DNA of 40,848 nucleotides from Clostridia bacterium. Its GTDB lineage: Bacteria; Bacillota; Clostridia; Christensenellales; Aristaeellaceae. Shown here piece after piece: positions 1 to 32,491 of the stretch. How positions within the stretch are numbered: the stretch's first letter is position 1; every line of letters begins with the position of its first letter. The notes beneath the pieces were generated by a model. That model searched no databases, was not told where the DNA came from, and saw nothing but the letters and a program-made list of their open reading frames with translations. Made by a program: the position numbers and the translations under genes. Location of the stretch: the NCBI GenBank assembly GCA_017469025.1, contig JAFUHD010000064.1, positions 1 to 40,848 on the forward strand. Direction: 5' to 3'.

Positions 1-94
1 AAAGGAGATGGCCCAGCATTTCATGCTGGTTTGTCAAATCATGACAACTGCTTATGATACGATGCCGAAAGCACGACTATGTCATTAAAGGAGG
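1..94 (+). repeat. 86-bp ribosome-site repeat, locus A (one unit plus the AAAGGAGG of the next)
   Basis: AAAGGAG occurs at position 1 and again at 87, exactly 86 bases apart. The unit carries a hairpin of CCAGCAT / ATGCTGG (loop TTC), a second TGTCA / TGACA hairpin, and a GAAA-containing segment between TGC and GCA. Its right end, AGGAGG at 89-94, is the ribosome site of the hydrolase that starts at 102. The left end coincides with the window edge, so further units may lie upstream. The same unit occurs near 14.2, 25.5 and 32.4 kb. Confidence 0.9.
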
Positions 95-101
95 ACGGAC
101 A

Positions 102-1022
102 GTGAAAAAGGTGGACTATACGTATCCATCAGCAACAGGTGTATGCGAGATTGCGGCATCATGTTATATGCCGGAAGATAGAAAATGGGATACAGTACTT
201 GTGATTCATCATGGTATGGCAGAGCACCAGGCCCGTTATCTGGGATTTATTGAATATCTGACAAAGAACGGAACTGCGGTTTATATGCATGATATGGCCA
301 ACCATGGCAGATCCAACAGGGACTTTGCACTGACAGGCTGGTTTGGCGAACAGAATGGGTATAAGGCACTGGTTAAAGATTTCAGGGAAAATGTGCTTCG
401 TGCCAAACGGGAGAATCCAGGGAAAAAGTTGATTGTCATGGGACATTCCATGGGTTCTTTCATCTGCCGGCTTTACACAGCGTGGTATCCGGACGATGGA
501 ATCAGCGGTGCTGTTTATATGGGGACAGGCGGACCGAATCCGGCAGCGGGTGCTGGAAAAACTGCAGCGAAGGCAATAGCCGCGGTTAAAGGAAAGAAAC
601 ACAAGAGCAGGACGCTGGATAAGCTTGCCTTTGGAACGTATAACAAGACATTTGAGGGACGTACCGCGTTTGACTGGCTGACCAGAGATAATGCCATCGT
701 TGACAGGTATATTGAGGATCAATACTGTGGTTTCCTCTTTACTGTACAGGGCATGCATGATCTGGTAGAGGCCAATGTGGAGTGCAATACGGACAAATGG
801 TTTAATGCAGTTCCTAAGGCGCTGCCGATACTGCTGGTCAGCGGCGCACAGGATCCGGTCGGATCATATTCTGCAGGGATTAAGGCAGTGGCTGCGAAAC
901 TGTCAGAGACGGGGCATATGAATGTGACGACAAAACTCTATCCGGACTGCAGACATGAGATTCTGAATGAACTGAACAAAGATGAGGTCATGGCAGATAT
1001 TGTACAGTGGATGAACCGGTAG
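102..1022 (+). CDS. alpha/beta hydrolase, monoacylglycerol lipase / serine aminopeptidase S33-like
   Basis: A 306-residue cytoplasmic alpha/beta hydrolase without a signal peptide. The nucleophile elbow GHSMGS puts the serine near residue 116. HHGMAEH near residues 36-42 fits the oxyanion-hole strand of the lysophospholipase/monoglyceride lipase group. The acid is probably the D of SGAQDPVG and the histidine that of CRHE near the C-terminus. I start at GTG 102, seven bases after AGGAGG; an upstream in-frame ATG at 54 lies inside the 86-bp repeat and would add a repeat-encoded tail (MIRCRKHDYVIKGG), so it is rejected. The substrate is probably an acyl ester but cannot be read from the sequence. 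The next gene follows after 54 bases and may be co-transcribed. Confidence 0.85.
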   Translation: MKKVDYTYPSATGVCEIAASCYMPEDRKWDTVLVIHHGMAEHQARYLGFIEYLTKNGTAVYMHDMANHGRSNRDFALTGWFGEQNGYKALVKDFRENVLRAKRENPGKKLIVMGHSMGSFICRLYTAWYPDDGISGAVYMGTGGPNPAAGAGKTAAKAIAAVKGKKHKSRTLDKLAFGTYNKTFEGRTAFDWLTRDNAIVDRYIEDQYCGFLFTVQGMHDLVEANVECNTDKWFNAVPKALPILLVSGAQDPVGSYSAGIKAVAAKLSETGHMNVTTKLYPDCRHEILNELNKDEVMADIVQWMNR

Positions 1023-1076
1023 AAGTGAGAAAAGGAATGAGCAGCACATGTGCATCAGTGAACAGGAGTGAGAAAT

Positions 1077-2453
1077 ATGCCGGTTATAGGGGCATATATG
1101 GTTCCGCACCCGCCAATGATTGTGCCTGCTGTCGGGCACGGAGGAGAGCGGAAAATAGAGGCAACGAAGCATGCATATGAAACGGTCGCGGAGGAAATTG
1201 CAGTTTTACAGCCTGATACGATTGTGATTACAAGTCCGCATGCCGTTATGTATGCCGACTATTTCCACATTTCTCCGGGATTCAGTGCTGCGGGAAACTT
1301 TGGCCGTTTCAATGCATCACAAATCTCTTTTCGTGAAAGGTATGATACGGCCCTTGTTGCAGAAATCTGCCGTCTGGCAGAGAATGCCGGTTTTCCGGCG
1401 GGAACGATGGGAGAACGTGAACCGGAACTGGACCACGGGACGATGGTGCCGCTGTATTTCATTCGACAGAAATGGAAAGGCGGTAAGATTGTCAGAATTG
1501 GGCTGTCGGGTTTGCCGCTCGCAGATCATTACCGTCTGGGGCAGCTGATCGCGGAAGCTGCAGAACGGACAAGCAGGCGCATTGTTTTTGTTGCCAGCGG
1601 TGACCTGTCTCATAAGCTGCTGGCATATGGTCCGTATGGTTTTGCGCCGGAGGGACCGGTATATGACCGCCGTGTCATGGAAAGCTGTGGAAATGGCCGA
1701 TTTGGCGAGCTGCTTGAATTTGAGGAAGGATTCTGCCAAAAGGCGGCGGAATGCGGGCATCGTTCCTTTGTCATTATGGCAGGCGCTTTGGATGGGTATG
1801 AAGTTACGGCAAAACAGCTTTCGCACGAAGATGTAACCGGTGTAGGCTATGGCATCTGCACATTTCATCCGGGGGAAAAGCACCCGGAACGCAGGTTTCT
1901 TGACGCGTTTCTGAAGAAAACAGAAGCAGACATGATTGCCCGGCGGAGCGGCGAAGATGAGTTTGTCCGGCTTGCCAGAGAAACCATAGAAGCGCATGTT
2001 CTTGGACGGCCGCATCGGGAAACTATCCCGGAAACACTTCGGCATGAGGCGGCAGGCGTATTTGTTTCGCTGCATAAGCAGGGAACGCTGCGGGGATGCA
2101 TAGGGACCATTCTGCCTGTGACAAAGTGCATCGGAGAGGAAATTGTGCGCAATGCCGTTAGTGCGGCTACAAGCGATCCAAGATTTGATCCGGTCCGGCC
2201 GGATGAACTCAAATGGCTTGAAATCCATGTAGATGTGCTCTCAAAGCCAGAACCAGTTCTGAGCAAGGGTCAGCTGGATACCAAACGGTATGGCGTCATC
2301 GTTACCAGCGGACAAAAGCGCGGACTGCTGCTGCCTGACCTGGAAGGGATAGATTCTGTGGATCAGCAGGTCGATATCGCGCGAAGAAAAGCAGGAATCA
2401 GCCAGAATGAACCAATACAGCTTCAGCGTTTTGAAGTGAAACGCCATTACTGA
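1077..2453 (+). CDS. Memo-like / AMMECR1 fusion protein (AmmeMemoRadiSam system protein A type)
   Basis: A 458-residue two-domain protein. Residues ~1-265 resemble the class III extradiol dioxygenase LigB/Memo fold (early VPHPP, then [17 protein letters not shown] and ECGHRSF, which carry the histidine and acidic positions of that fold). Residues ~290-455 are an AMMECR1 domain, recognised by LRGCIGT followed by [12 protein letters not shown]. In many anaerobes this fusion accompanies a radical-SAM partner (the AmmeMemoRadiSam set); none lies downstream here, as a terminator follows. The start is ATG 1077, eight bases after CAGGAG; the GTG at 1068 is within the ribosome site. Biochemical function is unknown in the family. 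Confidence 0.85.
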
Positions 2454-2580
2454 TAATGCATCGTAAATGATCACAGGTGAAACAATAATGGTAATTGTGC
2501 TCATTTACTGTGAATCTGCTGATACGGAAAAAATCGGTCGGGGGTATGTCTTGAAACCGGGATCCATGAGTATTAAAATG

Positions 2581-2612
2581 CCAGGCTCTTTTCGAGCCTG
2601 GTTGTCTTTTTT
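2581..2612 (+). terminator. Rho-independent terminator after the Memo/AMMECR1 gene
   Basis: CCAGGCTC and GAGCCTGG form a perfect 8-bp stem with loop TTTTC, followed by TTGTCTTTTTT. It lies about 130 bases after the stop codon and closes the first transcription unit. Confidence 0.9.
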
Positions 2613-2680
2613 GGATGGAATAATAGCAGAATGCTTAAAATTCTTCAAATAATTTGTACGCCTTGTATCCATGTTCACAG

Positions 2681-2709
2681 TTGACTTCATCGCGCTAAAG
2701 TAGTATCAT
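2681..2709 (+). promoter_or_regulatory. sigma-A type promoter of the amino-acid ABC operon
   Basis: TTGACT at 2681-2686 and TATCAT at 2704-2709 are 17 bases apart. They sit downstream of the preceding terminator and 67 bases before the binding-protein start codon. A small hairpin (CTGCCG / CGGCAG, 2740-2756) lies in the leader just before the GGAGGAG ribosome site. Confidence 0.7.
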
Positions 2710-2775
2710 GCTGATGTTTTCACTGAACAAACCATTTTGCTGCCGAAATGCGGCAGTATCTCAGGAGGAGTACAT

Positions 2776-3591
2776 ATGAAGAAGATTATTGCTGTTCTGA
2801 TTGCTGTTTGTCTGATGGGCATTGCCTGTGCTGCTTCCGCAGATAAGCTGGCCGAGATTAAGGAAAAGGGAAAACTTCTTGTTGGCGCCAATATTACATT
2901 CCCGCCATATGAGTTTTACTGGGCAAATCCGGAAACCGGAGCAGAAGAGATTGCAGGCTTTGACATGATGCTGGCAAAAGGCATTGGCGAGGCACTGGGA
3001 GTAGAGGTTGAAATTGCAGACCAGGCTTTTTCAGGACTGATCACCGCTCTGAGCGTGGGTGAACTGGACTGTGTTATTTCAGGTCTTGCAATCAAGCCGG
3101 AGCGTCTTGAGGTTGTTGATTTCTCAGATCCCTATTTCTCCGGTGAACAGATTCTGCTTGTCCGCAAGGAAGATTATGACAAGTATAAGACTGTCGAGGA
3201 TATGACAGGAAAGCGCATCGGTGCCCAGACCGGTTCACTGCAGGCGGGCATTCTGGCTGACCAGTTTGTCAATTCTGAAGAATACATCATTGAAAGCCCG
3301 GCCATTCTGGCACTCGATCTCGTTCAGGGCAATATTGACGGCTGGCTGATTACAGACCTGGTAGCCAAACAGTATATGGCTGCGTATCCGGATACCATGC
3401 AGATCTCTGAAGTTCCGGTTGATTATGACAGTTCTGCCGGCATCGGTGTTGCGGTACAGAAGGGCGATAATGCTTCCCTGCTGGAGGCAATCAATGCGTA
3501 TATTGCCCAGGTCAAGTCCGATGGGACTTTTGATGGATGGGTTAACGCAGCGGTTGACCAGTCGGCATCCCTGCTTGAAAAAGCTGAATAA
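2776..3591 (+). CDS. amino-acid ABC transporter substrate-binding protein (family 3)
   Basis: A 271-residue exported solute-binding protein. The signal peptide (MKKIIAVLIAVCLMG...) ends at a likely A-S-A cleavage before DKLAEIKEKG; a cysteine at IAC is only a poor lipobox. The mature N-terminus GKLLVGANITFPPYEF and the later GFDMMLAKGIGEALG and FSGLITALSVGELD are hallmarks of the SBP_bac_3 family, which binds polar amino acids. The start is ATG 2776 behind GGAGGAG; a 13-codon in-frame upstream extension has no ribosome site. It is first in an operon with permease, ATPase and an M20 peptidase, and an attenuator hairpin follows, consistent with higher expression of the binding protein. Confidence 0.92.
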   Translation: MKKIIAVLIAVCLMGIACAASADKLAEIKEKGKLLVGANITFPPYEFYWANPETGAEEIAGFDMMLAKGIGEALGVEVEIADQAFSGLITALSVGELDCVISGLAIKPERLEVVDFSDPYFSGEQILLVRKEDYDKYKTVEDMTGKRIGAQTGSLQAGILADQFVNSEEYIIESPAILALDLVQGNIDGWLITDLVAKQYMAAYPDTMQISEVPVDYDSSAGIGVAVQKGDNASLLEAINAYIAQVKSDGTFDGWVNAAVDQSASLLEKAE

Positions 3592-3599
3592 AGCGCAAC

Positions 3600-3633
3600 G
3601 GAGTCCTGCTTACGGGCGGGGCTCCCGATTTTT
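3600..3633 (+). terminator. intra-operon attenuator between binding protein and permease
   Basis: A 10-bp stem with two G-T pairs (GGAGTCCTGC with GCGGGGCTCC) is followed by CGATTTTT. Leaky terminators after the binding-protein gene are common in ABC operons and set a binding-protein excess. It could also simply stabilise the upstream message. Confidence 0.6.
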
Positions 3634-3656
3634 ACTGACAGAAAGGGAATAGTATC

Positions 3657-4334
3657 ATGCTCAGCTTCGCCAAGATATGGGAGATATTCACGACGAAGTT
3701 CCCCGTATTTATGCAGGGCGTCGGCGTTACGCTTCAGCTTGCATTTTTTACGGTCTTTCTGGGTTCACTCCTGGGACTGGTTGTGGCGATTCTCCGTCGT
3801 GTCCGGTTTCTGCCTCTCCGGATGCTTATGAACATGTATGTTGCGTTTATTCGCGGTACCCCGCTGCTGGTTCAGGTACTCATGATTGTCTACGGATTGC
3901 CGCAGCTGGGAATCCGGCTGCCGAGAATGACGCTGTGTGTTATTGCACTTGTGATCAATTCCGGTGCCTACATGGCAGAACTGATCCGGGCCGGCCTTCA
4001 GTCTGTTGATATTGGACAATCCGAGGCAGCCGATTCTCTCGGGATGTCTTCCTCCCAGAAGATGATGTATGTTATTCTGCCTCAGGCTGTCAAAGTGACG
4101 CTGCCGGCAGTCGGAAATGAGTTTATTGCCATTATCAAGGAATCATCCGTGCTTTATGCGGTCGGCGTGTATGAACTGACGTATCAGGCGAATAAGCTGG
4201 CATCGGTGAATTACCGGTATCTCGAAACGCTGATTGTAGCAGCTCTGATCTATTTTGTACTTACATACGCCATGAGCAAGCTCCTGGCGCTGCTGGAAGG
4301 GAGGATGCGCCGCAGTGAACGGGCCGTTGACTAA
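3657..4334 (+). CDS. amino-acid ABC transporter permease
   Basis: A 225-residue inner-membrane permease with about five hydrophobic segments. [10 protein letters not shown] near residues 62-71 and the [22 protein letters not shown] stretch (the EAA loop that contacts the ATPase) identify the HisM/GlnP family for polar amino acids. ATG 3657 follows AAAGGGA. The 3' end overlaps the ATPase start by 20 bases, indicating translational coupling. A single permease with one ATPase suggests a homodimeric channel. Confidence 0.92.
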
Positions 4335-5094
4335 ACAGCCGGTGGATTCCGGCTCACAGACGGAGATCCTCATGGAACTCCGGGATCTTCAAAAAAACTT
4401 TGGAAAGCTGGAAGTACTGAAGGGGATCAATCTCAATGTACATCGTGGGGATGTACTGGTGCTGATCGGACCAAGCGGCAGCGGAAAGTCTACGCTGCTG
4501 CGTTCTGTCAATCTCCTTGAACAGCCTACTGCCGGACAGGTGATTTTTGAGGGAAACGATCTGACCCGCGCCGGCAAAAAAGAACTCTGTCAGATGCGTC
4601 AGCGGATGGGCATGGTTTTCCAGCAGTTCAATCTGTTTCCGCATCTCCGGGTGGGTGAGAATATCACCATCAGCATGCGGAAAGTACGCGGGATGGATAA
4701 TGCGTCAGCAGAGAAAAAAGCCAAAGACCTGCTTTCACGGGTAGGGCTGCTCGATAAATGGAACGAGTATCCTGCACGTCTTTCAGGAGGACAGAAACAG
4801 CGTGTTGCCATTGTCCGTGCGCTGGCTATGGATCCGGATGTCATGCTGTTTGATGAACCGACAAGCGCACTGGATCCTGAGATGGTCGGGGAAGTGCTGG
4901 ATGTAATGAAACGTCTGGCAGCTGACGGTATGACAATGATGGTTGTGACGCATGAAATGCGATTTGCACGCCAGGTAGCGGATTATGTGCTCTTTATTGA
5001 CGAAGGACAGATTGTTGAGGCAGACCGTCCGGACCGTATTTTTGATGCCCCGCAGCAGAAGAGGACCCAGGATTTCCTTGAAAAGGTTTTGTAG
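4315..5094 (+). CDS. amino-acid ABC transporter ATP-binding protein (GlnQ/HisP type)
   Basis: A 259-residue cytoplasmic ATPase. Walker A GPSGSGKS is at residues 52-59, the Q-loop is in VFQQFNLFP, the signature LSGGQ is at 156-160, Walker B is [12 protein letters not shown], and the switch histidine is in VVTHEM near 213. The motif set matches polar amino-acid ABC ATPases. Start at GTG 4315 follows GGGAGG at normal distance and overlaps the permease gene; an internal ATG ([10 protein letters not shown]) is an alternative giving a more typical ~240-residue protein. Confidence 0.92.
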
Positions 5095-5126
5095 CCCCAA
5101 TTTGATAGAAAAGCAGGAGACGGGAT

Positions 5127-6233: not shown

Positions 6234-6239
6234 GACATA

Positions 6240-6275: not shown

Positions 6276-6810
6276 ATGAATTCGAGAAAAATGAAAATGC
6301 TACGCACTGCGTAGCAAATTGTGTTTATTGGTCACAGGCGCAGAGGCTGGTTGGTTCCTTAACTTGTTTCTCTGAGAGAATAAGCTGGGACTAAGTTTGG
6401 GATGAAGTTGAAAACTCTAAAGAATGGAGTGCTAATCCAACGCTCCCTGGGACTCGGGAAGAGGGCGTAGGCGCGTCCGGGATGCTCGGGTGATAGAGTG
6501 TGAGGGTATGAGCTGGAAGCCGCCAGAGATGCCTTGGAGCGCTCCAGGACGCCATCCCCGATTTTTTAATGCGATTCAACTGCTTCATGGTGCGGCAGAG
6601 TGAAAGCCGCGAGAGCCGAGGGAGAGCTGGTGAACAGCAGTCGCATAGCACATTTGTGCTATAGGTGTAAATGGTGTAAGAGAATAAAGGTTAACACGCA
6701 TTTATGATGTGAGGGCATAAAGGTTAACCCTCATTTATACCAGTGCTAAAAAGCACCATCACATAGCTGTTATCTCGTAGAGACTATAATTAATTTGCCA
6801 CTGCATTCTG
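6276..6810. other. unassigned fold-rich gap between convergent genes
   Basis: No protein with a convincing family signature lies here. Visible structure includes a 19-bp palindrome centred at 6307 (TGCTACGCA / TGCGTAGCA), a G-rich stretch at ~6440-6560 ending in TGGAGCGCTCCA and a T-run (6564-6569), hairpins GCGGC / GCCGC near 6592-6610, ATAGCACA / TGTGCTAT at 6645-6662, and a pair of 22-bp direct repeats at 6684-6738. It could hold a structured RNA; I cannot name a family or the transcribed strand. Confidence 0.45.
6684..6738. repeat. pair of 22-bp direct repeats, 33-bp period
   Basis: The 12-mer ATAAAGGTTAAC begins at 6684 and again at 6717, and both copies continue to CATTTAT (22 bases with three differences). 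The second copy is itself near-palindromic around GGTTAACC. The arrangement looks like two binding sites on one face of the helix, but no gene start is nearby. Confidence 0.6.
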
Positions 6811-8625: not shown

Positions 8626-8711
8626 CCTCATTTGGATGACTGTTTTGACCTTACGCCATCATTCTTTCTGCTGCCCATATTTGACAGACTGACGCTACGT
8701 GCTGTGGCAAC
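8626..8711 (-). repeat. decayed 86-bp ribosome-site repeat, locus G
   Basis: Aligned without gaps to the canonical unit, this stretch keeps ATATTTGACAGAC at the same internal offset, then a CTACGTGCTG-like hairpin side, and its end supplies the GAGG used by the membrane esterase. The rest has diverged, so this is the weakest member of the family. Confidence 0.4.
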
Positions 8712-9017
8712 TCAAAATGGTGATTCCCGCACGGGCAGGATAAGGAAACAGATGGACGTAATGCTGCTGATTCCGGCGGCTGAAGTCTGGCTTATTCTAG
8801 CGCTATTCCGGGGTCTGGTAAAGGGTACCTGCCACACCTGTATAGCAGAGAAGCCCTAAGACCCGGCATGTATCTGCATAATGGCAGTACAGAGGTATTC
8901 GGAGGAAATGACAGCGTTACGCCCACTGATGAAGTGGCACCAAAGTCAAGTTCAAATTTTAAACAGTCAAGACCTTTTTTGGGCATAACCTGGACAGCAC
9001 TCAACAAACTTTCATAT
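8712..9017. other. intergenic stretch without a recognisable gene
   Basis: Two short open frames cross here in opposite directions, but neither has a ribosome site or a family signature. GGGTCT near 8813 and AGACCC near 8859 can pair across an inner AGGG / CCCT helix, so a folded leader or RNA is possible. I see nothing else. Confidence 0.4.
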
Positions 9018-13213: not shown

Positions 13214-14125
13214 TCAGAGGCTGGTGTTCATGATTGCATTTACGATCATGGTTCCTGCCTCACGCCAGTGAGGCATAAAGTGCGGAATGAATCCATGACT
13301 GGTGTCAGGGAAAACTTTCATGGTTACCTCTACACCCAGAGAAGCCAGGCGTTTCCCCTGCTCAAGGTTTTGGAAACGGAATACATCGTTGGCCGCACCA
13401 AGGATCATGGTGGGTGGCAGAGCGGCAAGTGCACTTTCCGGCGCCATCATGAAATCAATGGAAGGATCATCCATCATGGCAGGATTATCATCGCTCATCA
13501 GGACCGCGAAACCAGCACTGCGGTGTTCCTGCGTTTTCCAGAATTCGGGTACCTGTTTAATAACACTGTCATTATAACGCATTTCGTTAGGACCGTAACC
13601 ATTAACGAGCAGGCAGAAAGGAAGCGGATTTCCCTGCATGCGGGAAACAGCGGAGATGCTCATCGTCAGTTGTCCGCCTGCGGAATAACCACCGCAGGAA
13701 ACACGTTTGGGATCGCAGTCCCAGTCTGCGAGATGGTCAAAAGTGAAACGGGCGGCATCCATGCATTGTTCCATTGGAACAGGAAAAGAGGAATATTCTG
13801 TGGTTGTGTAATCAATATCAACAACAACACCGCCGATCTGGTCAGCCAGCCAGGCACTCCAGAGCGTATCGTTCGGCATATGGCCGATGAGCCAGCCGCC
13901 ACCATGAATATTGATGTGCAGTGGACTTGAAGGCTTTTTGTTTTTTGCCTTGAATATATACAGTTTGTAAGGCCAGCCGCAGACGGAGGGCCTTTCAATG
14001 GTTTCCATGTCTGCAAGATCAGTAAATGTGCGGCATTCTGAGGGAATATCAGTATCACCGTCAAATTTACGATTGCTTTGCATATCCCGTGCCATCTGGG
14101 CGCGAAGTTCAGGGGTGAGCGGCAT
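13214..14125 (-). CDS. alpha/beta hydrolase fold-3 (hormone-sensitive lipase-like) esterase
   Basis: A 303-residue cytoplasmic esterase. HGGGW at 74-78 is the classic oxyanion hole of the HSL family, GYSAGG holds S148, the acid is in GAANDVF, and the histidine in DTSHGF. The start is ATG 14125, eight bases after the AAAGGAGG that ends the 86-bp repeat; the frame is open eight codons further into the repeat, which I reject. It is the first gene of a three-gene unit (two hydrolases and DUF3237) that follows the tct operon terminator and a tandem repeat array. Confidence 0.88.
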   Translation of the reverse strand: MPLTPELRAQMARDMQSNRKFDGDTDIPSECRTFTDLADMETIERPSVCGWPYKLYIFKAKNKKPSSPLHINIHGGGWLIGHMPNDTLWSAWLADQIGGVVVDIDYTTTEYSSFPVPMEQCMDAARFTFDHLADWDCDPKRVSCGGYSAGGQLTMSISAVSRMQGNPLPFCLLVNGYGPNEMRYNDSVIKQVPEFWKTQEHRSAGFAVLMSDDNPAMMDDPSIDFMMAPESALAALPPTMILGAANDVFRFQNLEQGKRLASLGVEVTMKVFPDTSHGFIPHFMPHWREAGTMIVNAIMNTSL

Positions 14126-14135
14126 GATGGACTCC

Positions 14136-14352
14136 TCCTTTAATGACATAGTCGTGCTTTTGGCACCGTATCAATCGCAGTTGTCATTATTTGACAGACC
14201 AGCACGTAGTGCTGGGCCATCTCCTTTAATGACATAGTCGTGCTTTCGGCACCGTATCAATCGCAGTTGTCATTATTTGACAGACCAGCACGTAGTGCTG
14301 GGCCATCTCGTTTAATGACATAGTCGTGCTTTCGGTATCGTATCAATCGCAG
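14136..14352 (-). repeat. tandem array of the 86-bp ribosome-site repeat, locus B (2.5 units)
   Basis: TCCTTTAATGACATAG starts at 14136 and 14222, and a variant TCGTTTAATG at 14308, an exact 86-bp period. The first two units differ at a single base (14161, t versus c). The third stops after about 45 bases. All read on the minus strand toward the esterase gene and end in its ribosome site. The hairpin here is CCAGCAC / GTGCTGG with loop TAC. Confidence 0.95.
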
Positions 14353-14443
14353 GCGTTATTTTTTTAATCGACAGCAGTATAAGCTATCGGCCCCGGTGAA
14401 CCATGTCATGTCTGTTGATCTGATAAACCGGTGCAGAACTTTG

Positions 14444-21133: not shown

Positions 21134-21148
21134 CAGGTTCCGTTTTCC

Positions 21149-21234
21149 TCCTATAAAGACATAGTTTGGTACTCAGCACCGAATCAATCGCAAATGCCAT
21201 TTTCTGAAAAAGCACCGCGGAGCACTGGAGCATC
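21149..21234 (-). repeat. decayed 86-bp ribosome-site repeat, locus E
   Basis: The stretch keeps GACATAG, CAGCACCG-ATCAATCGCA and a late GCACTGGAGCATCTC at the same offsets as the canonical unit, and both ends are again 86 bases apart (21149 and 21235). It lies in front of the ECF sigma gene in the same orientation as the intact copies, its end supplying AGGAGG. Confidence 0.75.
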
Positions 21235-21541
21235 TCTTCTTCAGGCAGCGTCATGGACTTTCAGAGTCAATGTCTGTTTCCATTTTGGCAGGCCGGTGCA
21301 GAATGCATGCTTATCTTCTTTCATTTTGTTAGACGCAGAGTCCTTCAAAATATGACAAACATCTTTGATAAAACGTTGAGAATATTTCAGACATCCTTTT
21401 TATGGATCTTTTTGCTTTCTGACTGCATCACATGTTTTGCCGGAACACGGTGCCGGCTGATGTAAATGCTGCGACTGGAGAAAAGAAGAAAAGACCTTTC
21501 AGCAGTGCAACCATGGAGTAACTACAGAGTTTGAGGTACAA
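21235..21541. other. intergenic region upstream of the MerR gene
   Basis: No gene is recognisable. A GCCGG / CCGGC hairpin lies at 21439-21457, and AT-rich sequence around 21350-21420 may hold the MerR promoter, but no well-spaced -35/-10 pair stands out. Confidence 0.4.
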
Positions 21542-24802: not shown

Positions 24803-25399
24803 TTATTTGTCTGGCGGAACAGGCATCTCAAATAATCCGTGCCTGTTGCAGTACGCATACAGTTTTCTTACGTGGCTGACATTAAATCTGGCCTCAGCAT
24901 TTCCTTCCGGATACAGTTTGACCAGCTGCATTCCCTGATCACTAATGGCTGCCAGAAATGAAATGTAGTGTGCTTTGGACATTGAATGTCGGACTGAAAC
25001 AAAGTACTCATCCTCTAAGAGTTCCACATGAATTCTGTGTTCATCGTCCATGGCTTCAGGTTCCTGCGGCACCAGTATTATCCCGCAGCAGCTGATTACT
25101 GCCTCACCGGTGGCGTGAATGATATTGCCGCAAGCCGGGCACACATAGAGCCTGTTTCTGAGCATGTTGAATGCCCGGTTTTTATTCTGAATGGCATTCC
25201 CGTTCAGCAGCTCGATCACGGATATTCCCAGAGCCTCTGCGAGAGGCTCGAGCAGACTGATATCCGGAAATCCTTTTCCGGTTTCCCATTTACTGACTGC
25301 TTTGGTGCTTACGTGGATTGCATCTGCCAGCTTTTCCTGAGTCATTCCTTTATTTTCACGCAGACTGCGAATGACGGATCCAGTTACATAATTGTTCAT
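24803..25399 (-). CDS. XRE regulator fused to a desulfoferrodoxin-type iron domain
   Basis: A 198-residue protein. Residues 7-61 are a Cro/CI helix-turn-helix (MTQEKLADAIHVSTKAVSKW). The rest resembles desulfoferrodoxin: CPACG (C87, C90) with a later CC (C104-C105), then the superoxide-reductase-like iron site with EHRIH (H121/H124), RHSMSKAHY (H138, H144) and YCNRHG (C184, H187). All ligand positions of the square-pyramidal Fe(His)4Cys centre appear present. A superoxide- or redox-responsive repressor is the natural inference. ATG 25399 lies seven bases after the repeat's AAAGGAGG; an upstream ATG within the repeat is rejected. Confidence 0.88.
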   Translation of the reverse strand: MNNYVTGSVIRSLRENKGMTQEKLADAIHVSTKAVSKWETGKGFPDISLLEPLAEALGISVIELLNGNAIQNKNRAFNMLRNRLYVCPACGNIIHATGEAVISCCGIILVPQEPEAMDDEHRIHVELLEDEYFVSVRHSMSKAHYISFLAAISDQGMQLVKLYPEGNAEARFNVSHVRKLYAYCNRHGLFEMPVPPDK

Positions 25400-25408
25400 G
25401 ATGTCTCC

Positions 25409-25590
25409 TCCTTTAATGACATTGTCGTGCTTTCGGCACCGTATCAATTGCAGTTGTCATGATTTGAAAAACCAGCATGAAATGCTGGGCCATCTCCTTT
25501 AATGACATTGTCGTGCTTTCGGCACCGTATCAATTGCAGTTGTCATGATTTGACAAACCAGCATGAAATGCTAGGCCATCTCCTGTAATG
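25409..25590 (-). repeat. tandem array of the 86-bp ribosome-site repeat, locus C (2 units plus a 10-base stub)
   Basis: TCCTTTAATGACATTG starts at 25409 and 25495, and TCCTGTAATG at 25581, an exact 86-bp period. The two full units differ at two bases. Hairpin type is CCAGCAT / ATGCTGG. The array reads on the minus strand into the XRE regulator and ends in its ribosome site. Confidence 0.95.
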
Positions 25591-26126: not shown

Positions 26127-26299
26127 AGCATGATAATAGCCCTACCTATTGACGCTGGTATACCGGCGGACCCAATGCATAATCTGTTTCATAGAAGCCA
26201 AGATGCATTTGCGTAAAACACCTTTGCCTGTTTTTACAGAGAGACTGCCTTTATCGGACAGACACAGAAAAATGAATGCAAATGCCGGCTTTGAATGTA

Positions 26300-27073
26300 T
26301 TACCTGTGAATATAGACTCTTGTCATTTCGGGCTCGCCGTCTCCCTGTGCCATGCACAGGAATGTCCAACCATACCGTTCATAGAATCCGGTGTGATCCG
26401 TGACAAGATACAACGGCGAAATCCCCTTCTCCCGCATGTCCTCTACAACCATATTCAGCAGATGTCCCGCAATGCCGTGGCCGCGACAGGCTTTTTCTGT
26501 ATAAACAGCGCACACGTTTGGCGCAAGGTCTTTACGGTCATGAAAATCATTTTCAATGACGCCCAGTCCACCGATGATGCTGTTTCCGTCAAGGCACAGA
26601 TACCATCCATATTCCGTTTCCCCGTTCAGATAGGCCGTCATGCATGCAGTGTAAGCCTCCTGCGGGATGCCCCATTTTTCATGAAACCATGCTGAGGCGG
26701 ATGCCAGAAGATCCGGCCGGCTGCGCAGGGAAACAAAGGCATAGCCCTTCAGGTTTAAGGCTGCATCCTTATTGTTCTGCAGAAGTGCAGCAAGCTTTTC
26801 GCAGCTGTTCATTTCCGGGCAGCTTCCACATGTTTCGGCTTTTTTGGTGAGCGCGCATTGTCGTATTGGACAAAGTGAATCACAGTAAGGCGTTTTGAGA
26901 CCTTCCATCCTGCAGCCTTCACAATAGATCTGGTCCGGCGTGATTTGTGTATTGTTCAGCTCAGACCAGAGTGCTGCGACCTTTCTGCGCAAATTCTCAT
27001 CTTTATTGATGGTGGCAGTATGTGCATCACACTTATTGCAGTCCAGCCCGCAATAGGCAATGTTTTTATTCAT
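26300..27073 (-). CDS. DUF3795 - GNAT acetyltransferase fusion protein
   Basis: A 257-residue two-domain protein. Residues ~1-85 carry a cysteine-rich DUF3795 domain (CGLDCNKC at 8-15, then CEGC, CDSLCPIRQC and CGSCPEMNSC), probably a metal-binding module. Residues ~100-257 form a GNAT fold, with the acetyl-CoA loop in RGHGIAGHLL and the final beta strand in HTGFYERYGW. The acceptor substrate is unknown. ATG 27073 follows GAGG. It is 106 bases after the DUF998 gene on the same strand. Confidence 0.85.
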   Translation of the reverse strand: MNKNIAYCGLDCNKCDAHTATINKDENLRRKVAALWSELNNTQITPDQIYCEGCRMEGLKTPYCDSLCPIRQCALTKKAETCGSCPEMNSCEKLAALLQNNKDAALNLKGYAFVSLRSRPDLLASASAWFHEKWGIPQEAYTACMTAYLNGETEYGWYLCLDGNSIIGGLGVIENDFHDRKDLAPNVCAVYTEKACRGHGIAGHLLNMVVEDMREKGISPLYLVTDHTGFYERYGWTFLCMAQGDGEPEMTRVYIHR

Positions 27074-27179
27074 GATGGGTTCCTCACTTTCAGTTTCCTG
27101 TATGAGCAGATCCGAATGTCAGTAGAGAGGTGTTATTGGGACAGATGGTAAATCATTTTGAAAATTCCGGGCTTGTACA

Positions 27180-27851
27180 TTAAATGGATGAATCAGTGCC
27201 CTGCGGCATTCTGCAGAATGAAGGGAATCCCTGAAACAGGTATATGCCAAGGATTGCATTGAAGCCGACGGCAGCGAAAACGCTGAAACGTTCCACAATG
27301 CCAAAGTACTCTGGCGGAACAATGCCCTGGCCTATGGCACCGGTCAGCATCATAAGCAATGCGACAGATGCCCAGATTCCGATGCCTTTTGCGCGCTGCT
27401 CTCTGCATCCGGCAATAATCATGCAAATCAGTGAAGCAACAGACAGTAAAACGACAAAAGCCGTGACAAGGATGTGCATGATATCCTGAAAGGATACAGT
27501 TTCCATTTCTGTATCTGAAAGTGGGAACATGGCATACCCGACGCATGATACCCAGTTCATTATGGTGAACAGGTAAATGCCTGTCCGAAAAAGGCGGGGA
27601 AACCCTTTCTGCTCTGAGACATAAATTGCGGTACAGGTGGCACATACGATGCTGCCTGAATTGTAGAACGAAGACAGACGGTCCCACTGAGCCCGTGAAG
27701 GGGCATTGGATGCGGACAGGTCGCTGACTGCCTGTGCCATCCAGTTGTAACCCGGAAAAGCAGATGGAGCAAATATGACCGCTGAAGCATAGGAAACCAG
27801 GGCGAATATTCCCGTCAGGCCGAACCATTGAATGAGTTTTTTGTGCATCAT
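27180..27851 (-). CDS. DUF998 family membrane protein
   Basis: A 223-residue integral membrane protein with six hydrophobic segments. PGYNWMAQAVSDLSASNAPS in the first loop is the DUF998 signature, followed by helices with FNSGS-like (FYNSGSI) and FPLSDTE motifs. Function is not established in the family. The start is ATG 27851 behind AAAGGA; the frame runs 42 codons further upstream without a ribosome site and through a decayed 86-bp repeat. Confidence 0.82.
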   Translation of the reverse strand: MMHKKLIQWFGLTGIFALVSYASAVIFAPSAFPGYNWMAQAVSDLSASNAPSRAQWDRLSSFYNSGSIVCATCTAIYVSEQKGFPRLFRTGIYLFTIMNWVSCVGYAMFPLSDTEMETVSFQDIMHILVTAFVVLLSVASLICMIIAGCREQRAKGIGIWASVALLMMLTGAIGQGIVPPEYFGIVERFSVFAAVGFNAILGIYLFQGFPSFCRMPQGTDSSI

Positions 27852-27859
27852 TGTTTCAT

Positions 27860-27945
27860 TCCTTTGTGGCGCTGCTTTGGGGTTCAGCACCGTATCATTT
27901 GGATAAACCATTTCAGACAGAACTGTGCAGAGCCGGCGGTTTTTA
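27860..27945 (-). repeat. decayed 86-bp ribosome-site repeat, locus F
   Basis: TCCTTT at 27860 and CAGCACCGTATCA at the same internal offset as in the canonical unit (base 27 onward) identify a degenerate copy in front of the DUF998 gene, again supplying its AAAGGA. The distal half is poorly preserved. Confidence 0.6.
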
Positions 27946-28045
27946 TTTCTGGTAATGTTTCGGGCTTTCAGCGCCATTCCTGACTGTCAGTATTTGTCAA
28001 AATGGCGTGTGCCTGGATGCCTTCTGGCTCTGAGAGGGTCAATGC

Positions 28046-28561
28046 TCAAAAGAAGATGTTTTTTTTAAGCTCCATTTCCAGACACTTCCATGTATCCTTT
28101 CCAATATGGAAAAAGGAAGGTGGTGTTTCGACTGTTTCCGTGAAGCCTGCCGCCAGATAGCATCTGTGTGCTGCCGGGTTGTTTTCAAATACACCCAGTG
28201 TGATTCTTTCAGGTCCCAGAAATTCGAAAGCATACTGGATTGCCATGGAAAGCATTTTCCGTCCATAGCCTTTGCCGCGCTTGTTTGGATCGACAATGAC
28301 AAATCCGAAGCGGAGGGTATGTTTTTCTTTGTCAGTGAAGCGCATGATCAGATGTCCGACAATGCCTGTTTCATCAAAGGCTGTGAACTCGTAGAAACTG
28401 TCGGAATCTGCCATTGCCTCATAGTGCCGGTTCAGATCTTCGGCCGTGATGGGATAAGCAGGAAAGCGGTCCGCGCTCCATTTACGGAAAGATATTTCAT
28501 CGCCTGACCATGAAACGATCGCGGAAGCATCACAGGACTTGTATGGTCTTAATCGAAGCAT
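28046..28561 (-). CDS. GNAT family N-acetyltransferase (RimL-like)
   Basis: A 171-residue acetyltransferase. RLRPYKSCDA at the start, VDPNKRGKGYGRKML as the acetyl-CoA binding loop, and ENNPAAHRCYLAAGF as the last motif place it with RimJ/RimL-type enzymes. It starts 12 bases after the MATE gene and is probably the last gene of the ABC-MATE unit. The target could be a protein amino-terminus, an antibiotic or a small amine; not determinable. Confidence 0.88.
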   Translation of the reverse strand: MLRLRPYKSCDASAIVSWSGDEISFRKWSADRFPAYPITAEDLNRHYEAMADSDSFYEFTAFDETGIVGHLIMRFTDKEKHTLRFGFVIVDPNKRGKGYGRKMLSMAIQYAFEFLGPERITLGVFENNPAAHRCYLAAGFTETVETPPSFFHIGKDTWKCLEMELKKNIFF

Positions 28562-28573
28562 CTTATCCCTCCG

Positions 28574-29959
28574 TCATTTGTTTTGTACCGTCAGATTGTT
28601 GAGCCAGCCTTCTTTTTTGAGCCAGAAATGGAAAATGACCATTTTGATTACATCAATCAGTTTCACACCGCAGTACAGGACTACTGGCCCCGCGTCCGTG
28701 AACCTGGCAAGAAGGAAGACCATGGGGAGCATGACGAAAACTGTCAGTCCTGCATCGGTAATTGCACCCATCCGGGTATCGCCGCCAGATCGTGCGACAG
28801 CCTGTTGTGTGTTCATATAGACCCAGGCAGGCATGAACAGCGCCATGGTGCTGACCATTCGTCTGCAGATGTCGAGCGCGCTGGCACTGAGACGGCTGAA
28901 TACGACAGGGACGAGCAGGGTTGTAGCAAGACCGAACACGGTCATGCCAAGACCGAATACCGCAGAACCGGACAGCAGCCATCTTTTCTCGCGTCTGGCC
29001 TGCTCGAGGCGGCCTGCGCCAAGAGATTTCCCCAGTATGACACCAGTGGCTGAGTAGACACCACCGAATGCCACGAAATACAGATTGGCAATTGCAAAGC
29101 TGGATGCCATGCCGGATACAACGTCTGCGCCGCCCCTGCCGTTGTAAAGTGCAGTGGTAATGGTTTCAGAAAGTACCCAGACCATCTCACAGAACAGGAC
29201 CAGTGCACTCTTTTTCAGAATATCCTTAAAAAGCGCAGTGTCTATTTTCAGAATGCCAGAAATGCGAATGGCAAAATCGGGCTTTGTACGGATATACACC
29301 GCCAGAAAAAGCAGCAGTTCAAGCATTCTTGCGATGACGGTTGCAAGGGCAGCACCACGGACGCCAAGTCTTGGAAAGCCAAGGTTTCCATAGATCAGGA
29401 GCCAGTTGAACAGTGTATTTGCAAGTGTTGCAATAATGGTCACAACAAGTGGTATTTTGACCTCTCCCAAATCTCTGAGTGAGCTGGCAATGCAGACAGA
29501 TAATGTCATGGGAATACCGATCAGGACCATAATCCGGATATATGGTACGGCTTCATCCAGAATCTGAGCAGCCTGTGTATTGCCAATCAGCATAAGTGAT
29601 AAAGTCTGTCTTGGAATGACCATACAGACAATGAAGTAAGGAATGAACGCTGCAAGGCTTGCAATCAGCTTGAAGCGGAAAGCCTGCTGCATTCCGGCCT
29701 GGTTCCCAGCCCCAAAGAACTGTGTCATGAAAATGCCGCCTGACATGCATATGGCATTGTCAAACACCAGAAAGATAAATAAGATTTGTCCGGCTACATT
29801 GACGCCGGACATGCTGACGTCACCCAGTCCGGATACCATGAAGTTGTCAACCAGGGATACAAGGCTCTGGATCAGCTGCTGAAGCATGATCGGTACAGCG
29901 ATGGCCAGAGCCCTTTTATAGAACGTTCCCGGGCCGAAGAGCCCGCTTTTGAGCTGCAT
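28574..29959 (-). CDS. MATE family efflux transporter
   Basis: A 461-residue membrane protein with about 12 helices in two similar halves (ALAIAVPIMLQQLIQSLVSL near the start; QARREKRWLLSGSAVFGLGM beginning the second). Length and the early VDNFMVSGLGDVSMSGVNVA motif fit MATE antiporters, which expel drugs or metabolites with Na+ or H+. ATG 29959 follows TGGAGA and is 23 bases after the ABC permease gene. Confidence 0.92.
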   Translation of the reverse strand: MQLKSGLFGPGTFYKRALAIAVPIMLQQLIQSLVSLVDNFMVSGLGDVSMSGVNVAGQILFIFLVFDNAICMSGGIFMTQFFGAGNQAGMQQAFRFKLIASLAAFIPYFIVCMVIPRQTLSLMLIGNTQAAQILDEAVPYIRIMVLIGIPMTLSVCIASSLRDLGEVKIPLVVTIIATLANTLFNWLLIYGNLGFPRLGVRGAALATVIARMLELLLFLAVYIRTKPDFAIRISGILKIDTALFKDILKKSALVLFCEMVWVLSETITTALYNGRGGADVVSGMASSFAIANLYFVAFGGVYSATGVILGKSLGAGRLEQARREKRWLLSGSAVFGLGMTVFGLATTLLVPVVFSRLSASALDICRRMVSTMALFMPAWVYMNTQQAVARSGGDTRMGAITDAGLTVFVMLPMVFLLARFTDAGPVVLYCGVKLIDVIKMVIFHFWLKKEGWLNNLTVQNK

Positions 29960-29982
29960 AATCTGTTCTCCAAATGAAATCG

Positions 29983-31587
29983 TTAAGGTGATTTACGCTT
30001 TGCCAGCCTCATTACGGTCAGATAACTGAGAAGAGCAAGCAGTGCTGCGGTCAGAGTAAAGGCGGCGGCAAGCAGAATGTGACTGATTCTGAGTCCGAGG
30101 AAAACGACGAGCACGGTCAGTCCCATGACAATAAACATATTGGGGAGCATATAGATGGCAACTGCTGAGCTCTGCTTGATTACTTCAATTTCGTTTTCCC
30201 AGTCAAGCCGCATATGGCGGATTCCGCATACACAGCCCCATGAAGTTGAAAATGCGCAAAGAGCGAATCCGAGAACAAGATACATGAAGGTATTTACCGC
30301 CGGAACCTTCGCTGAAATGCACAGGCATAATGTTGAGAAAGCCATAAATGGGACTGACAGGACCATGTTGAACAGCATCTTGCCCTGATATACGGTTTTC
30401 ATTTCAATGGGCAGGCTCCTGATGATCCAGTAGTTCTTTCCTTCCAGAGAAGGAGAGCATACGGTTGTGGCAATCATACCGATAAAGAAGTATATGATAA
30501 ATGGAATTGCCGGCTGGAGCATGGATGTATCCAGCGGCGCACCATTTGTGACCACTGCAATGATCCTGTCAAAACCGATGAGAATCGTTGCAATGCCCAG
30601 AATGGCAGACAGAATTTCTCCCAGCGCGCAATTGACCAAATATGAAGTGGAACCGGACATACGTTTCCATTCTTTTAAGGCAATTGCGACAACGGGGCTG
30701 TGCTGTCTTTGGCTGGATAACGTGTATTCTTTGGCGGCGGCATGGGCATTGAGTGCAGAGTTAATACCCCGGTAGAAAATGCCAATCACATAAAAGATGC
30801 CGGCAAAAAGGAATACACTCGCAAGGATGAGCAGGCAGGCTGACAAAATATCATGCCGGGTTACAGCAGCAGCAAACCACGCGGCAGGCAGATATATGCC
30901 TGCGGCTTTGGACGTGATTTCGGATGATGATTCAAGTGTTGCCTGTATTTTTTCATTTCTGAACAAATCATCAATGATGAAACGGAGAGAGAAGCAGAAG
31001 ATGACAAACAGAAATGTCAGTATGGTCTGGATGAGGGTTGTCTTTCTGAAACCTGAACTGATTTTTGCAATCAGAAAGCCTGCAAATGCTGCAGCCAGCA
31101 TGGGAATGACCGGCAGAAAAAGTGACAGAATAAGCCACAGTGGATAGACGGATACTGGAGGATGGGCATAAAGTCCGTATCCGATTAACATGGCAATGCT
31201 GATACAGCCATACCAGGGCAGGCTTTCGATGTACATGTACAGGAATTTGCAGCCTGCTATTGTCCGTGCCTCGAAAGGAAGCGACATCAGCATGTCATAT
31301 TCCCTGAAATGAAAGAGATAACCGTTTGTTTTGAAAAATGTAAACAGAAATGCCAGAATGCTGATAGTCAGTGCACATGTTGCAGGTATCGCTTCGATCA
31401 TGCCGTATGTTCCATATCCGGCACACATTGCGATACAGTAAACCACGAGCATTAAGTACAGGCAGAGCATTCCGATGGTATTGCTGATAATCTTCCTGCG
31501 CTTCTTTCTGTCCGTGGTATGCCGGTATATGTTTTTCCGGCTGGTAGACAGCAGCAGGGCTTTCAAAAGAATGACGCTATTTTTCAT
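29983..31587 (-). CDS. ABC transporter permease, ABC-2 / multidrug type
   Basis: A 534-residue membrane protein with about 12 hydrophobic segments in two groups and a soluble loop near the middle (ALKEWKRMSG). Large two-unit permeases of this kind pair with a single CcmA-like ATPase. The start is ATG 31587, inside the end of the ATPase gene (11-base overlap) behind GGAGG; an upstream in-frame extension is antisense-free but unneeded. Substrate unknown; drug, peptide or lipid export is the family range. Confidence 0.85.
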   Translation of the reverse strand: MKNSVILLKALLLSTSRKNIYRHTTDRKKRRKIISNTIGMLCLYLMLVVYCIAMCAGYGTYGMIEAIPATCALTISILAFLFTFFKTNGYLFHFREYDMLMSLPFEARTIAGCKFLYMYIESLPWYGCISIAMLIGYGLYAHPPVSVYPLWLILSLFLPVIPMLAAAFAGFLIAKISSGFRKTTLIQTILTFLFVIFCFSLRFIIDDLFRNEKIQATLESSSEITSKAAGIYLPAAWFAAAVTRHDILSACLLILASVFLFAGIFYVIGIFYRGINSALNAHAAAKEYTLSSQRQHSPVVAIALKEWKRMSGSTSYLVNCALGEILSAILGIATILIGFDRIIAVVTNGAPLDTSMLQPAIPFIIYFFIGMIATTVCSPSLEGKNYWIIRSLPIEMKTVYQGKMLFNMVLSVPFMAFSTLCLCISAKVPAVNTFMYLVLGFALCAFSTSWGCVCGIRHMRLDWENEIEVIKQSSAVAIYMLPNMFIVMGLTVLVVFLGLRISHILLAAAFTLTAALLALLSYLTVMRLAKRKSP

Positions 31588-32308
31588 CAGTGTCTGCCTC
31601 CAGGAAAGTTTCCTCCAGTGAATGGCCTTCCGTGAGTTCCTCCATTGTGCCGGCGGCAATAATTCGGCCATGCCGGATGATTGCTATTTTGTTGCACAGT
31701 TTTTCTGCAACATCCAGCACATGCGTTGAAAAGAATATGGCGGTACCGCTTCTGCACATTTCGTGCATGATCTCCTTCAGTGCAAAGGATGCCTTCGGAT
31801 CGAGTCCGACAAATGGTTCATCCAGGACCAGAAGCTTTGGATAATGTATCAGGGCTGAAACGATGGCAAGCTTCTGTTTCATGCCATGCGAATACGAACC
31901 GATAAGATCACCCAGGGCATCCGTGATTTCAAAAATGTCAGCATATTTCCTTATGTCGGCTTCCCGCTGCGGGGCACTTATGCCGAATACATCAGCTATG
32001 AAATTCAGATACTGGATGCCCGTCAGATTATCATAAAGGTCCGGATTGTCCGGAATGTAGGCTGTAACCTGCTTGCAAGCGAGAGGCTCATCCTTCACGG
32101 AATGTCCGTCAATGATAATCTCACCTTCAGAAAAATCCAGAACACCTGCCACTGCGCGAATTGTTGTTGATTTGCCTGCACCGTTATGCCCGATAAAGCC
32201 GTAAATATCACCTTCCATAACGTTCAGGGTTACATGGTCTACGGCCATTTTATCGGTGCCATAGGATTTTGAGTAATTTTTGATTTCAAGGACAGCTTTT
32301 GTATTCAT
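31577..32308 (-). CDS. ABC transporter ATP-binding protein (CcmA type)
   Basis: A 243-residue ATPase. Walker A is GHNGAGKST, the signature is YSHGMKQK (SHGM instead of SGGQ, common in ABC-2 exporters), Walker B is LLVLDEPFVGLD, and the switch histidine is in FFSTHVLD. It is first in the unit and starts ten bases after the repeat-borne AAAGGAG. It forms a transporter with the overlapping permease gene. Confidence 0.93.
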   Translation of the reverse strand: MNTKAVLEIKNYSKSYGTDKMAVDHVTLNVMEGDIYGFIGHNGAGKSTTIRAVAGVLDFSEGEIIIDGHSVKDEPLACKQVTAYIPDNPDLYDNLTGIQYLNFIADVFGISAPQREADIRKYADIFEITDALGDLIGSYSHGMKQKLAIVSALIHYPKLLVLDEPFVGLDPKASFALKEIMHEMCRSGTAIFFSTHVLDVAEKLCNKIAIIRHGRIIAAGTMEELTEGHSLEETFLEADTDEK

Positions 32309-32319
32309 TGTTCCAAGTC

Positions 32320-32491
32320 TCCTTTAATGACATAGTCGTGCTTTCGGCACCGTATCAATTGCAGTTGTCATGATTAGACAAACCAGCATGAAATGCTGGG
32401 CCATCTCCTTCAGTGACATAGTTGTGCTTTCGGCACCGTATCAATTGCAGCTGTCATTATTTGACAAACCAGCACATAGTGCAGGGCTATC
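32320..32491 (-). repeat. tandem array of the 86-bp ribosome-site repeat, locus D (2 units of different subtype)
   Basis: TCCTTTAATGACATAG starts at 32320 and TCCTTCAGTGACATAG at 32406, then TTCCCTAA near 32492 marks the outer edge. The first unit has the CAT-GAA-ATG hairpin of locus C; the second has CAC-ATA-GTG, close to the type at locus B. The array leads into the ABC ATPase gene and supplies its ribosome site. Confidence 0.93.

What the first reader, a model, noticed from the sequence alone, without database searches (positions are those of the whole stretch)
1..32491. A family of 86-bp intergenic elements that always ends in the ribosome-binding site of the next gene
Well-preserved units occur at 1-94, 14136-14352, 25409-25590 and 32320-32491, and decayed ones at 8626-8711, 21149-21234 and 27860-27945. 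In every case the unit is oriented so that its terminal AAAGGAG(G) lies about 7-13 bases before a start codon. The downstream genes are unrelated (lipase, esterase, redox regulator, ABC ATPase, ECF sigma factor, DUF998, membrane esterase). AAAGGAG is present at both ends of each unit, so an element inserting at, and regenerating, a Shine-Dalgarno target would give this picture and keep the gene translatable. A shared 5'-UTR regulator is the other reading. I know of no named repeat family of this form.
Basis: partly seen in the sequence, partly recalled or inferred. Interest (0 to 1): 0.9.

Follow-up and report, generated by a model that had tools for sequence, protein, structure and literature searches.

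The report
Mobile DNA that lands on ribosome-binding sites
A gut bacterium carries hundreds of copies of an 86-letter mobile DNA that inserts right behind the short sequence ribosomes use to find genes and brings its own copy of that sequence, which should let the gene next door keep working.

Summary
The 86-bp unit has 255 hits with up to 3 mismatches in the 4.25-Mb genome, 0 in the control. It ends in AAAGGAG 5-11 nt before the start of an ORF in 54 of 83 arrays, against 3 of 83 at the other end. It is best read as a mobile element, not a shared 5'-UTR regulator. In 53 well-preserved arrays it sits directly 3' of (A)AAGGAG; left-flank variants are not copied at the right end, so it seems to carry its own AAAGGAG without target duplication. 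Related species have empty sites at parB and a PF04463 gene. One copy interrupts a transposase gene, whose flanks joined without the 86 bp read as one open frame. It was found in 6 of 300 genomes sampled from the family, all in one genus; the four with most copies have their own diverged families with the same position before genes. The architecture resembles IS200/IS605-derived 'PATE' elements, but no mobilising enzyme could be tied to it. Mycobacterial MIRUs are the functional precedent. Novelty: a mobile element whose target and own end are a Shine-Dalgarno sequence.

The parts
8..93 (+). 86-bp unit (ATGG...TTAAAGGAG) preceded by the AAAGGAG at 1-7; ends 8 nt before a GTG start at 102 (alpha/beta hydrolase)
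14135..14220 (-). unit nearest the gene of a 3-unit array; ends 9 nt before ATG at 14125 (Abhydrolase_3 protein)
14221..14306 (-). second unit of the array
14307..14392 (-). third, decayed unit, furthest from the gene (aligned part 14307-14385)
25408..25493 (-). unit nearest the gene; ends 8 nt before ATG at 25399 (HTH plus desulfoferrodoxin-like protein)
25494..25579 (-). second unit of the array
32319..32404 (-). unit nearest the gene; ends 10 nt before ATG at 32308 (ABC transporter ATPase)
32405..32490 (-). second, more diverged unit of the array
21148..21240 (-). decayed unit before a sigma-70-type (ECF-like) sigma-factor gene (ORF start 21133)
27859..27948 (-). decayed unit before a DUF998 gene
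8628..8717 (-). possible very decayed unit before a carboxylesterase gene; not significant (E 0.22)

Best explanation
The unit is a non-autonomous mobile DNA element of 86 bp, ATGGCCCAG...CATTAAAGGAG. It inserts, in one orientation, directly 3' of the sequence (A)AAGGAG, makes no detectable target duplication, and carries the same AAAGGAG as its own 3' end. When the target is the Shine-Dalgarno sequence of a gene, the old one is left upstream and the element supplies an equal one at about the original distance from the start codon, so the insertion should be close to neutral for translation. The new end is again a target, so further copies insert there and build 86-bp arrays whose older units tend to lie further from the gene. 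Insertions elsewhere (terminators, genes) occur but seem mostly lost by selection. Shown: target motif, absence of a copied target, empty sites, decay with distance, diverged families in related species. Inferred: neutrality for translation, selection against other sites, and mobilisation as single-stranded DNA by an HUH-type (Y1 or Y2) transposase acting in trans on the conserved hairpins, as for IS200/IS605-derived PATEs. That enzyme is not identified.
For: 255 core hits in one genome; the same pattern in 1 of 59 relatives. Left flank of 53 well-preserved arrays: A38 A45 A51 G50 G50 A53 G51 of 53. 24 of 54 left flanks differ from AAAGGAG; of 33 differing letters 1 recurs at the right end. 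Empty sites: parA-parB junction TAAAGGAG in G016 against 3 units in G000; stop-AGGAG-start in G015 against one unit in G000 for a PF04463 gene. A Y2-transposase gene is split at an internal AAAGGAG, and its flanks joined without 86 bp give a 413-codon open frame. A terminator stem in L019 contains the target (13 bp when joined). Start codon 5-11 nt after the right end in 54 of 83 arrays, 3 of 83 at the left end, 38 of 242 at shifted positions; G015 28 of 41 against 1 of 40 at the left end and 22 of 123 shifted. Identity to consensus falls from 0.939 to 0.890 to 0.749 with distance from the gene. 19 of 142 units are identical. Terminal letters do not match as inverted repeats, 4 of 20. Left hairpin: 7 of 7 pairs change on both sides between species, 94.9% of cells paired; right-hand helix arms co-vary between G000, G004 and G002.
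Against: No enzyme is tied to it. The 4 Y1 matches in G000 are short fragments (open frames 41-100 aa), several at contig ends; 2 of the 4 have a unit within about 350 bp, one of them a unit split by the IS, which I read as chance and insertion but which could hint at a link. Y1 occurs in 12 of 23 element-free genus members. Y2 genes share no ends with the unit. A duplication of only GGAG cannot be fully excluded, since nearly all targets have GGAG. Adjacent units within arrays are slightly more alike than permuted ones (0.875 against 0.859, p 0.0004), so some arrays grew by local duplication. In adjacent pairs the gene-proximal unit is closer to consensus in 28, equal in 4 and further in 16 of 48. 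In G002 the shifted control is high, 14 of 39. In the hairpin test the number of further pair types is not above shuffles (12 against 12.9, 430 of 500). The right-hand helix is weak in G015. No guide sequence complementary to the target was seen by eye at the hairpin foot.
Confidence: 0.85

Rival explanations
1. A cis-acting RNA regulator (riboswitch, thermometer or protein-binding leader) shared by a regulon, conserved because it controls translation from the adjacent SD.
For: Structured, with conserved stretches outside the left hairpin (TTTGTCAAAT, GGTGCCGAAAG) and a helix within 3 nt of the SD; 54 of 83 arrays before ORFs.
Against: Downstream genes are of unrelated families in the window and look so elsewhere (not family-searched); 29 of 83 arrays are not before an ORF; copies in a terminator and inside a gene; no Rfam match above chance; absent from some orthologous sites in relatives; 19 of 142 units identical points to recent spread.
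Confidence: 0.06
2. A MIRU-like element whose small open frame (26 codons, ATG...TAA overlapping the SD) couples translation to the next gene.
For: In G000 81 of 105 distinct units keep a frame from near the left end to a stop at the SD; third codon positions carry more substitutions, 316 against 205 and 193.
Against: Such a frame is present in 7 of 51 units in G015, 1 of 21 in G004 and 0 of 14 in G002; open frames in G000, 119 of 130, are near the 88% expected under random substitution; the ATG lies 0 nt from GGAG, too close for normal initiation (established knowledge).
Confidence: 0.08
3. A conventional MITE with a 4-5 bp target duplication (GGAG or AGGAG), moved by a DDE transposase.
For: GGAG stands on both sides in nearly all well-preserved copies.
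Against: Terminal letters do not form an inverted repeat; deviating left flanks (ACGGAG, AATAG, AGAAG, AAGAG) face an intact right end, and right ends GGAC, GGGG and ATGGAG are not matched at the left.
Confidence: 0.1
4. Mobilisation by an IS91-type Y2 (rolling-circle) transposase rather than a Y1 enzyme; tandem arrays would be a by-product of rolling-circle transfer. A variant of the best explanation, not an alternative to mobility.
For: PF04986 is found in G000 (4), G002 (4) and G004 (1) and in none of the other 26 genus genomes: 3 of 6 element-bearing, 0 of 23 others, p 0.0055 without correction for shared ancestry. No duplication and tandem arrays fit (features of IS91 recalled).
Against: Not found in G015, which has the largest other family (that genome is 75% complete), nor in G016 and G023; element-bearing genomes are among the larger ones; searches of 6 Y2 loci with both models show no shared ends and the flanks of L282 read by eye show none; within-array similarity is little above background.
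Confidence: 0.2

Closest known systems
PATEs (palindrome-associated transposable elements) derived from IS200/IS605 (PMC3119063, PMC7290912; passages read)
   Same: No terminal inverted repeats, palindromes near the ends, no target duplication, too short for a transposase, a short target directly 5' of the element, fixed orientation to it.
   Different: No parent IS sharing its ends was found; the target is AAGGAG, a Shine-Dalgarno sequence, and the 3' end repeats it, which allows arrays and restores the site.
MIRU of mycobacteria (PMC12548453, one passage; PMC2734929, passages)
   Same: Short repeat, often in tandem, apparently mobile, inserted at the boundary before a gene so that expression is little disturbed.
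   Different: MIRUs are described as inserting at start codons and coupling an internal ORF to the gene; here the insertion is at the SD and the ORF is not conserved. Sequence similarity was not tested.
REP/REPIN sequences and RAYT (TnpA-REP) (PMC8266576 passages, PMC3733652 abstract and outline, PMC3116915 search listing)
   Same: High-copy, extragenic, hairpin-bearing, probably moved as single strands.
   Different: No GTAG or CGTC tag at the hairpin foot, no RAYT found in G000, lies before genes rather than mainly downstream of them, 86 bp rather than 20-40.
BOX and RUP repeats of pneumococcus (PMC3049150; search listing only)
   Same: Small interspersed repeats in a Firmicute.
   Different: Modular or inverted-repeat elements not tied to the SD (recalled).

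Membership tests
IS200/IS605-derived PATE | No terminal inverted repeats | tested here: met
   4 of 20 terminal letters match, chance 5
IS200/IS605-derived PATE | No target duplication | tested here: met
   1 of 33 deviating left letters recurs at right; exact 86-bp insertion in L283; 4-bp GGAG not fully excluded
IS200/IS605-derived PATE | Fixed short target directly 5' of the element | tested here: met
   (A)AAGGAG in 53 arrays
IS200/IS605-derived PATE | Palindromes near both ends | tested here: met
   left hairpin covaries; right-hand helix covaries in 3 species, weak in G015
IS200/IS605-derived PATE | Palindromes shared with a parent IS carrying Y1 TnpA | tested here: not met
   Model matches near 13 Y1 loci are separate or split units or weak, none at both ends of a Y1 element; G000 is 93.7% complete and several of its Y1 loci are cut by contig ends
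IS200/IS605-derived PATE | Guide tetranucleotide at hairpin foot pairing with target | tested here: inconclusive
   No canonical complement of GGAG seen at the foot by eye (consensus); non-canonical pairing was not modelled
REP (GTAG or CGTC tagged) | GTAG or CGTC next to the palindrome | tested here: not met
   by eye, hairpin foot reads ATGGC or GGGC
REP (GTAG or CGTC tagged) | RAYT gene flanked by the repeats | tested here: not met
   none found with PF01797
MIRU | Insertion at start codon with coupled internal ORF | tested here: not met
   ORF not conserved across species; insertion is at the SD
MITE | Terminal inverted repeats and target duplication | tested here: not met
Known Rfam RNA | Match above gathering score | tested here: not met
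   0 matches in the window; only matches far below gathering scores for two unit regions
IS91/Y2 rolling-circle element | Ends shared with a Y2 transposon | tested here: not met
   6 Y2 loci searched with both models: only the unit inside L283 and one weak match (E 0.05) in it; L282 flanks read by eye

The most novel reading that the evidence does not exclude
A class of mobile DNA specialised on the Shine-Dalgarno sequence, in which target specificity and the element's own 3' end change together between species. In G000 both read AAAGGAG. In G002 the target has G at -6 in 10 of 13 copies and the element mostly ends in AGAGGAG, against G at -6 in 4 of 53 in G000. Such an element can install the same structured leader and ribosome-binding site in front of many genes at little cost, and so could rewire translation genome-wide.
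Probability: 0.55. Interest if true: 0.85.

Novelty: new variant of a known kind. Interest (0 to 1): 0.72.

Why it matters
Repeats in bacterial genomes are usually tolerated where they do least harm. This one appears to solve the problem by taking the ribosome-binding site as target and handing an equal one back, so it can sit in the 5' leader of many genes. It offers a natural test of how neutral a 5'-UTR insertion can be, points to a strand-specific enzyme with an AAGGAG target, and is a possible source of translation variation between strains. Several species with separately diverged families make the question testable by comparison.

Tried and rejected
Coding hypothesis: a 26-codon frame fills the G000 unit, but it is rare or absent in three other species. 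Riboswitch or known RNA: no Rfam hit above chance. RAYT or Y1 partner: only fragments in G000; one of them (L107) sits inside a unit, another (L105) has a unit about 270 bp away; presence of Y1 does not follow presence of the element. Y2 partner: suggestive distribution but no shared ends. Phage or plasmid carriage: none in viral contigs for two exact patterns, none in plasmid or phage records for the 86-bp consensus. Intragenic insertions: joined flanks give an ORF across the junction in 18 of 69 arrays against 22 of 69 with mismatched flanks, so no excess. Upstream regions of 13 genes were sought in three relatives and placed for 11 of 13; I saw a clean stop-SD-start empty site only for the PF04463 gene, the other intergenic regions being too diverged to align by eye. 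The first control for the right-hand helix shuffled the wrong stretch and is replaced. Literature: none of the listings of the nine searches shows a repeat described as inserting at Shine-Dalgarno sequences; the library holds open-licence papers only.
Full report
Observation. Four well-preserved arrays lie in the window; the covariance model built later recovers two of the three decayed units with E 5e-18 and 1e-8, while the one at 8.6 kb has E 0.22 and stays unproven. The genes behind the arrays belong to unrelated families.

Genome-wide. A 36-nt core of the unit has 255 hits with at most 3 mismatches in the 4.25-Mb, 373-contig genome G000, 140 on one strand and 115 on the other, 0 for the reversed control. 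Only about 100 of the 255 are listed there; I fetched the surroundings of most of those, giving 142 units in 97 arrays: 56 single, 29 double and 12 triple. The other hits were not examined. Several contigs end in or next to a unit, so the assembly may undercount them. Of 83 arrays with enough sequence, 54 have the start codon of an ORF of at least 50 codons 5-11 nt after the right end; the left end shows this in 3 of 83, and points shifted by 40-120 nt in 38 of 242. So 'always' should read 'in about two thirds'. In the window, outside the units, AAGGAG occurs 16 times: 3 as SD, 12 inside rough gene calls, 1 elsewhere. The position before genes is thus not explained by AAGGAG being found only there; either insertions in genes are lost or SDs are preferred.

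Mobility. Among 53 arrays whose outermost unit is at least 90% like the consensus, the bases before the unit are A38 A45 A51 G50 G50 A53 G51. In the same test with a slightly looser flank limit (54 arrays), 24 left flanks differ from AAAGGAG; of 33 differing letters 1 recurs at the right end, and right-end variants are not mirrored at the left (one right end, L082, is out of register). The simplest reading is insertion 3' of (A)AAGGAG by an element that carries its own AAAGGAG as 3' end. A duplication of GGAG alone cannot be ruled out. Empty sites agree. Upstream of parB (ParB domains; the gene before it is called parA by its motif, recalled), G016 reads TAAAGGAG-gacaact-ATG where G000 has TAAAGGAG, three units, gatcccg-ATG; G015 has a unit of its own family there (65.8 bits), and G004 a hairpin-bearing remnant that I see by eye but the model does not report. 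Before a PF04463 gene G015 has stop-AGGAG-start where G000 has one unit; G004 and G016 have no unit there either. In L019 the unit lies in a terminator stem whose halves join into 13 bp; with the unit in place the new AAAGGAG still forms 11 bp. In L283 one unit splits an IS91-type transposase gene at an internal AAAGGAG, and the flanks joined without 86 bp form one open frame of 413 codons, running from the contig end. The last two cases show that the target is the sequence, not its role in translation.

Arrays. Identity to the consensus falls with distance from the gene: 0.939, 0.890, 0.749 (37, 37 and 11 units), as expected if new copies land on the AAAGGAG next to the gene, although stronger selection on the gene-proximal unit would look similar; pair by pair the trend is 28 for, 16 against, 4 equal. 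Adjacent units are only slightly more alike than permuted pairs (0.875 against 0.859, p 0.0004, 37 arrays), with 7 of 37 pairs at 0.98 or more. Most arrays thus look like repeated insertion and a few like local duplication.

Relatives. With 3 mismatches only G015 of 59 relatives has a hit, but a covariance model finds diverged families in the same genus: 147 hits in G000, 148 in G015, 63 in G004, 40 in G002, 5 in G023, 3 in G016 and 1 doubtful in G021, of 29 genomes (only 147 candidates per genome were scored, so the first two are lower bounds). In 300 genomes sampled from the family, with stricter filters, 6 of 300 and 1 of 50 genera have it, G000 included. Of the 102 model hits in loci of the other species I tested 86, leaving out repeats of a place, inner units and a cut one. 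Terminal units precede a start codon in 28 of 41 (G015), 9 of 13 (G002), 7 of 14 (G004), 1 of 3 (G023) and 1 of 3 (G016); left-end controls are 1 of 40, 1 of 13, 1 of 14, 0 of 3 and 0 of 3; shifted controls are 22 of 123, 14 of 39, 4 of 39, 1 of 9 and 0 of 9. In G002 both target and right end have shifted towards GAGGAG (G at -6 in 10 of 13 left flanks). No copy was found in viral contigs, plasmids or phages; outside this genome a 23-nt exact pattern hits two MAG contigs in genome contigs.

Structure. The left hairpin changes completely between species while 94.9% of cells stay paired; all 7 pairs show changes on both sides and 0 of 500 shuffles reach its covariation score, though the number of pair types is not above shuffles (23 sequences). 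The right-hand helix, whose 3' strand ends within 3 nt of the SD, reads ATGACA:TGTCAT in G000, ATGAGC:GCTCAT in G004 and ACGAGC:GCTCGT in G002; at least 5 of 6 pairs form in 98 of 100, 12 of 15 and 11 of 14 units, against 13.9, 1.7 and 1.7 expected; G015 is weak (8 of 41, expected 4.8); 5 (G000), 6 (G004), 0 (G002) and 10 (G015) units were dropped because an arm could not be placed. A 26-codon frame in G000 is not conserved.

Mechanism. No inverted repeats, no duplication, a fixed 5' target and palindromes near both ends are the marks of IS200/IS605-type elements and of their transposase-free PATEs (PMC7290912 and PMC3119063, passages read). That makes an HUH single-strand transposase the likeliest mover. 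It remains inference: Y1 matches in G000 are fragments, two of the four with a unit nearby, and Y2 genes occur in 3 of 6 element-bearing and 0 of 23 other genus members (p 0.0055, uncorrected) but share no ends with the unit.

Known or new. The nearest precedent for the logic is the MIRU, described as apparently mobile and inserting at start codons with minimal effect on the gene (PMC12548453, one passage read). The nearest precedent for the architecture is the PATE. Neither is tied to Shine-Dalgarno sequences in the passages I read, and the searches named above listed no such report. I file it as a new variant of a known kind.

Noticed in passing
L283 (G000:C64) 1-1328: An IS91-type (PF04986) transposase gene is interrupted by one 86-bp unit; a related gene in L282 (426 aa) has no unit in it.
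   Followed up: yes
L107 1339-1607: An IS200-like element sits inside a unit, splitting it after the left hairpin.
   Followed up: partly
contig ends of G000 (for example C1, C97, C110, C271, C292): Several contigs end inside or next to units, so the repeat may break the assembly and copy number is probably a lower bound.
   Followed up: no
L061/L062 (G015:C43) and L063/L108 (G060:C56): Units nearly identical to G000's in other MAGs, each on one short contig; possibly misbinned contigs of the G000 species.
   Followed up: no
window 24803-25399: A protein joining a helix-turn-helix domain to a desulfoferrodoxin-like domain.
   Followed up: no
window 6671-6736: A two-copy 33-bp tandem repeat with ATAAAGGTTAAC, apparently unrelated to the unit.
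   Followed up: no
parA-parB junction in G000, G015 and perhaps G004: Two species, and by eye a third, carry units of their own families at the same site, so some SDs may be hit repeatedly.
   Followed up: partly
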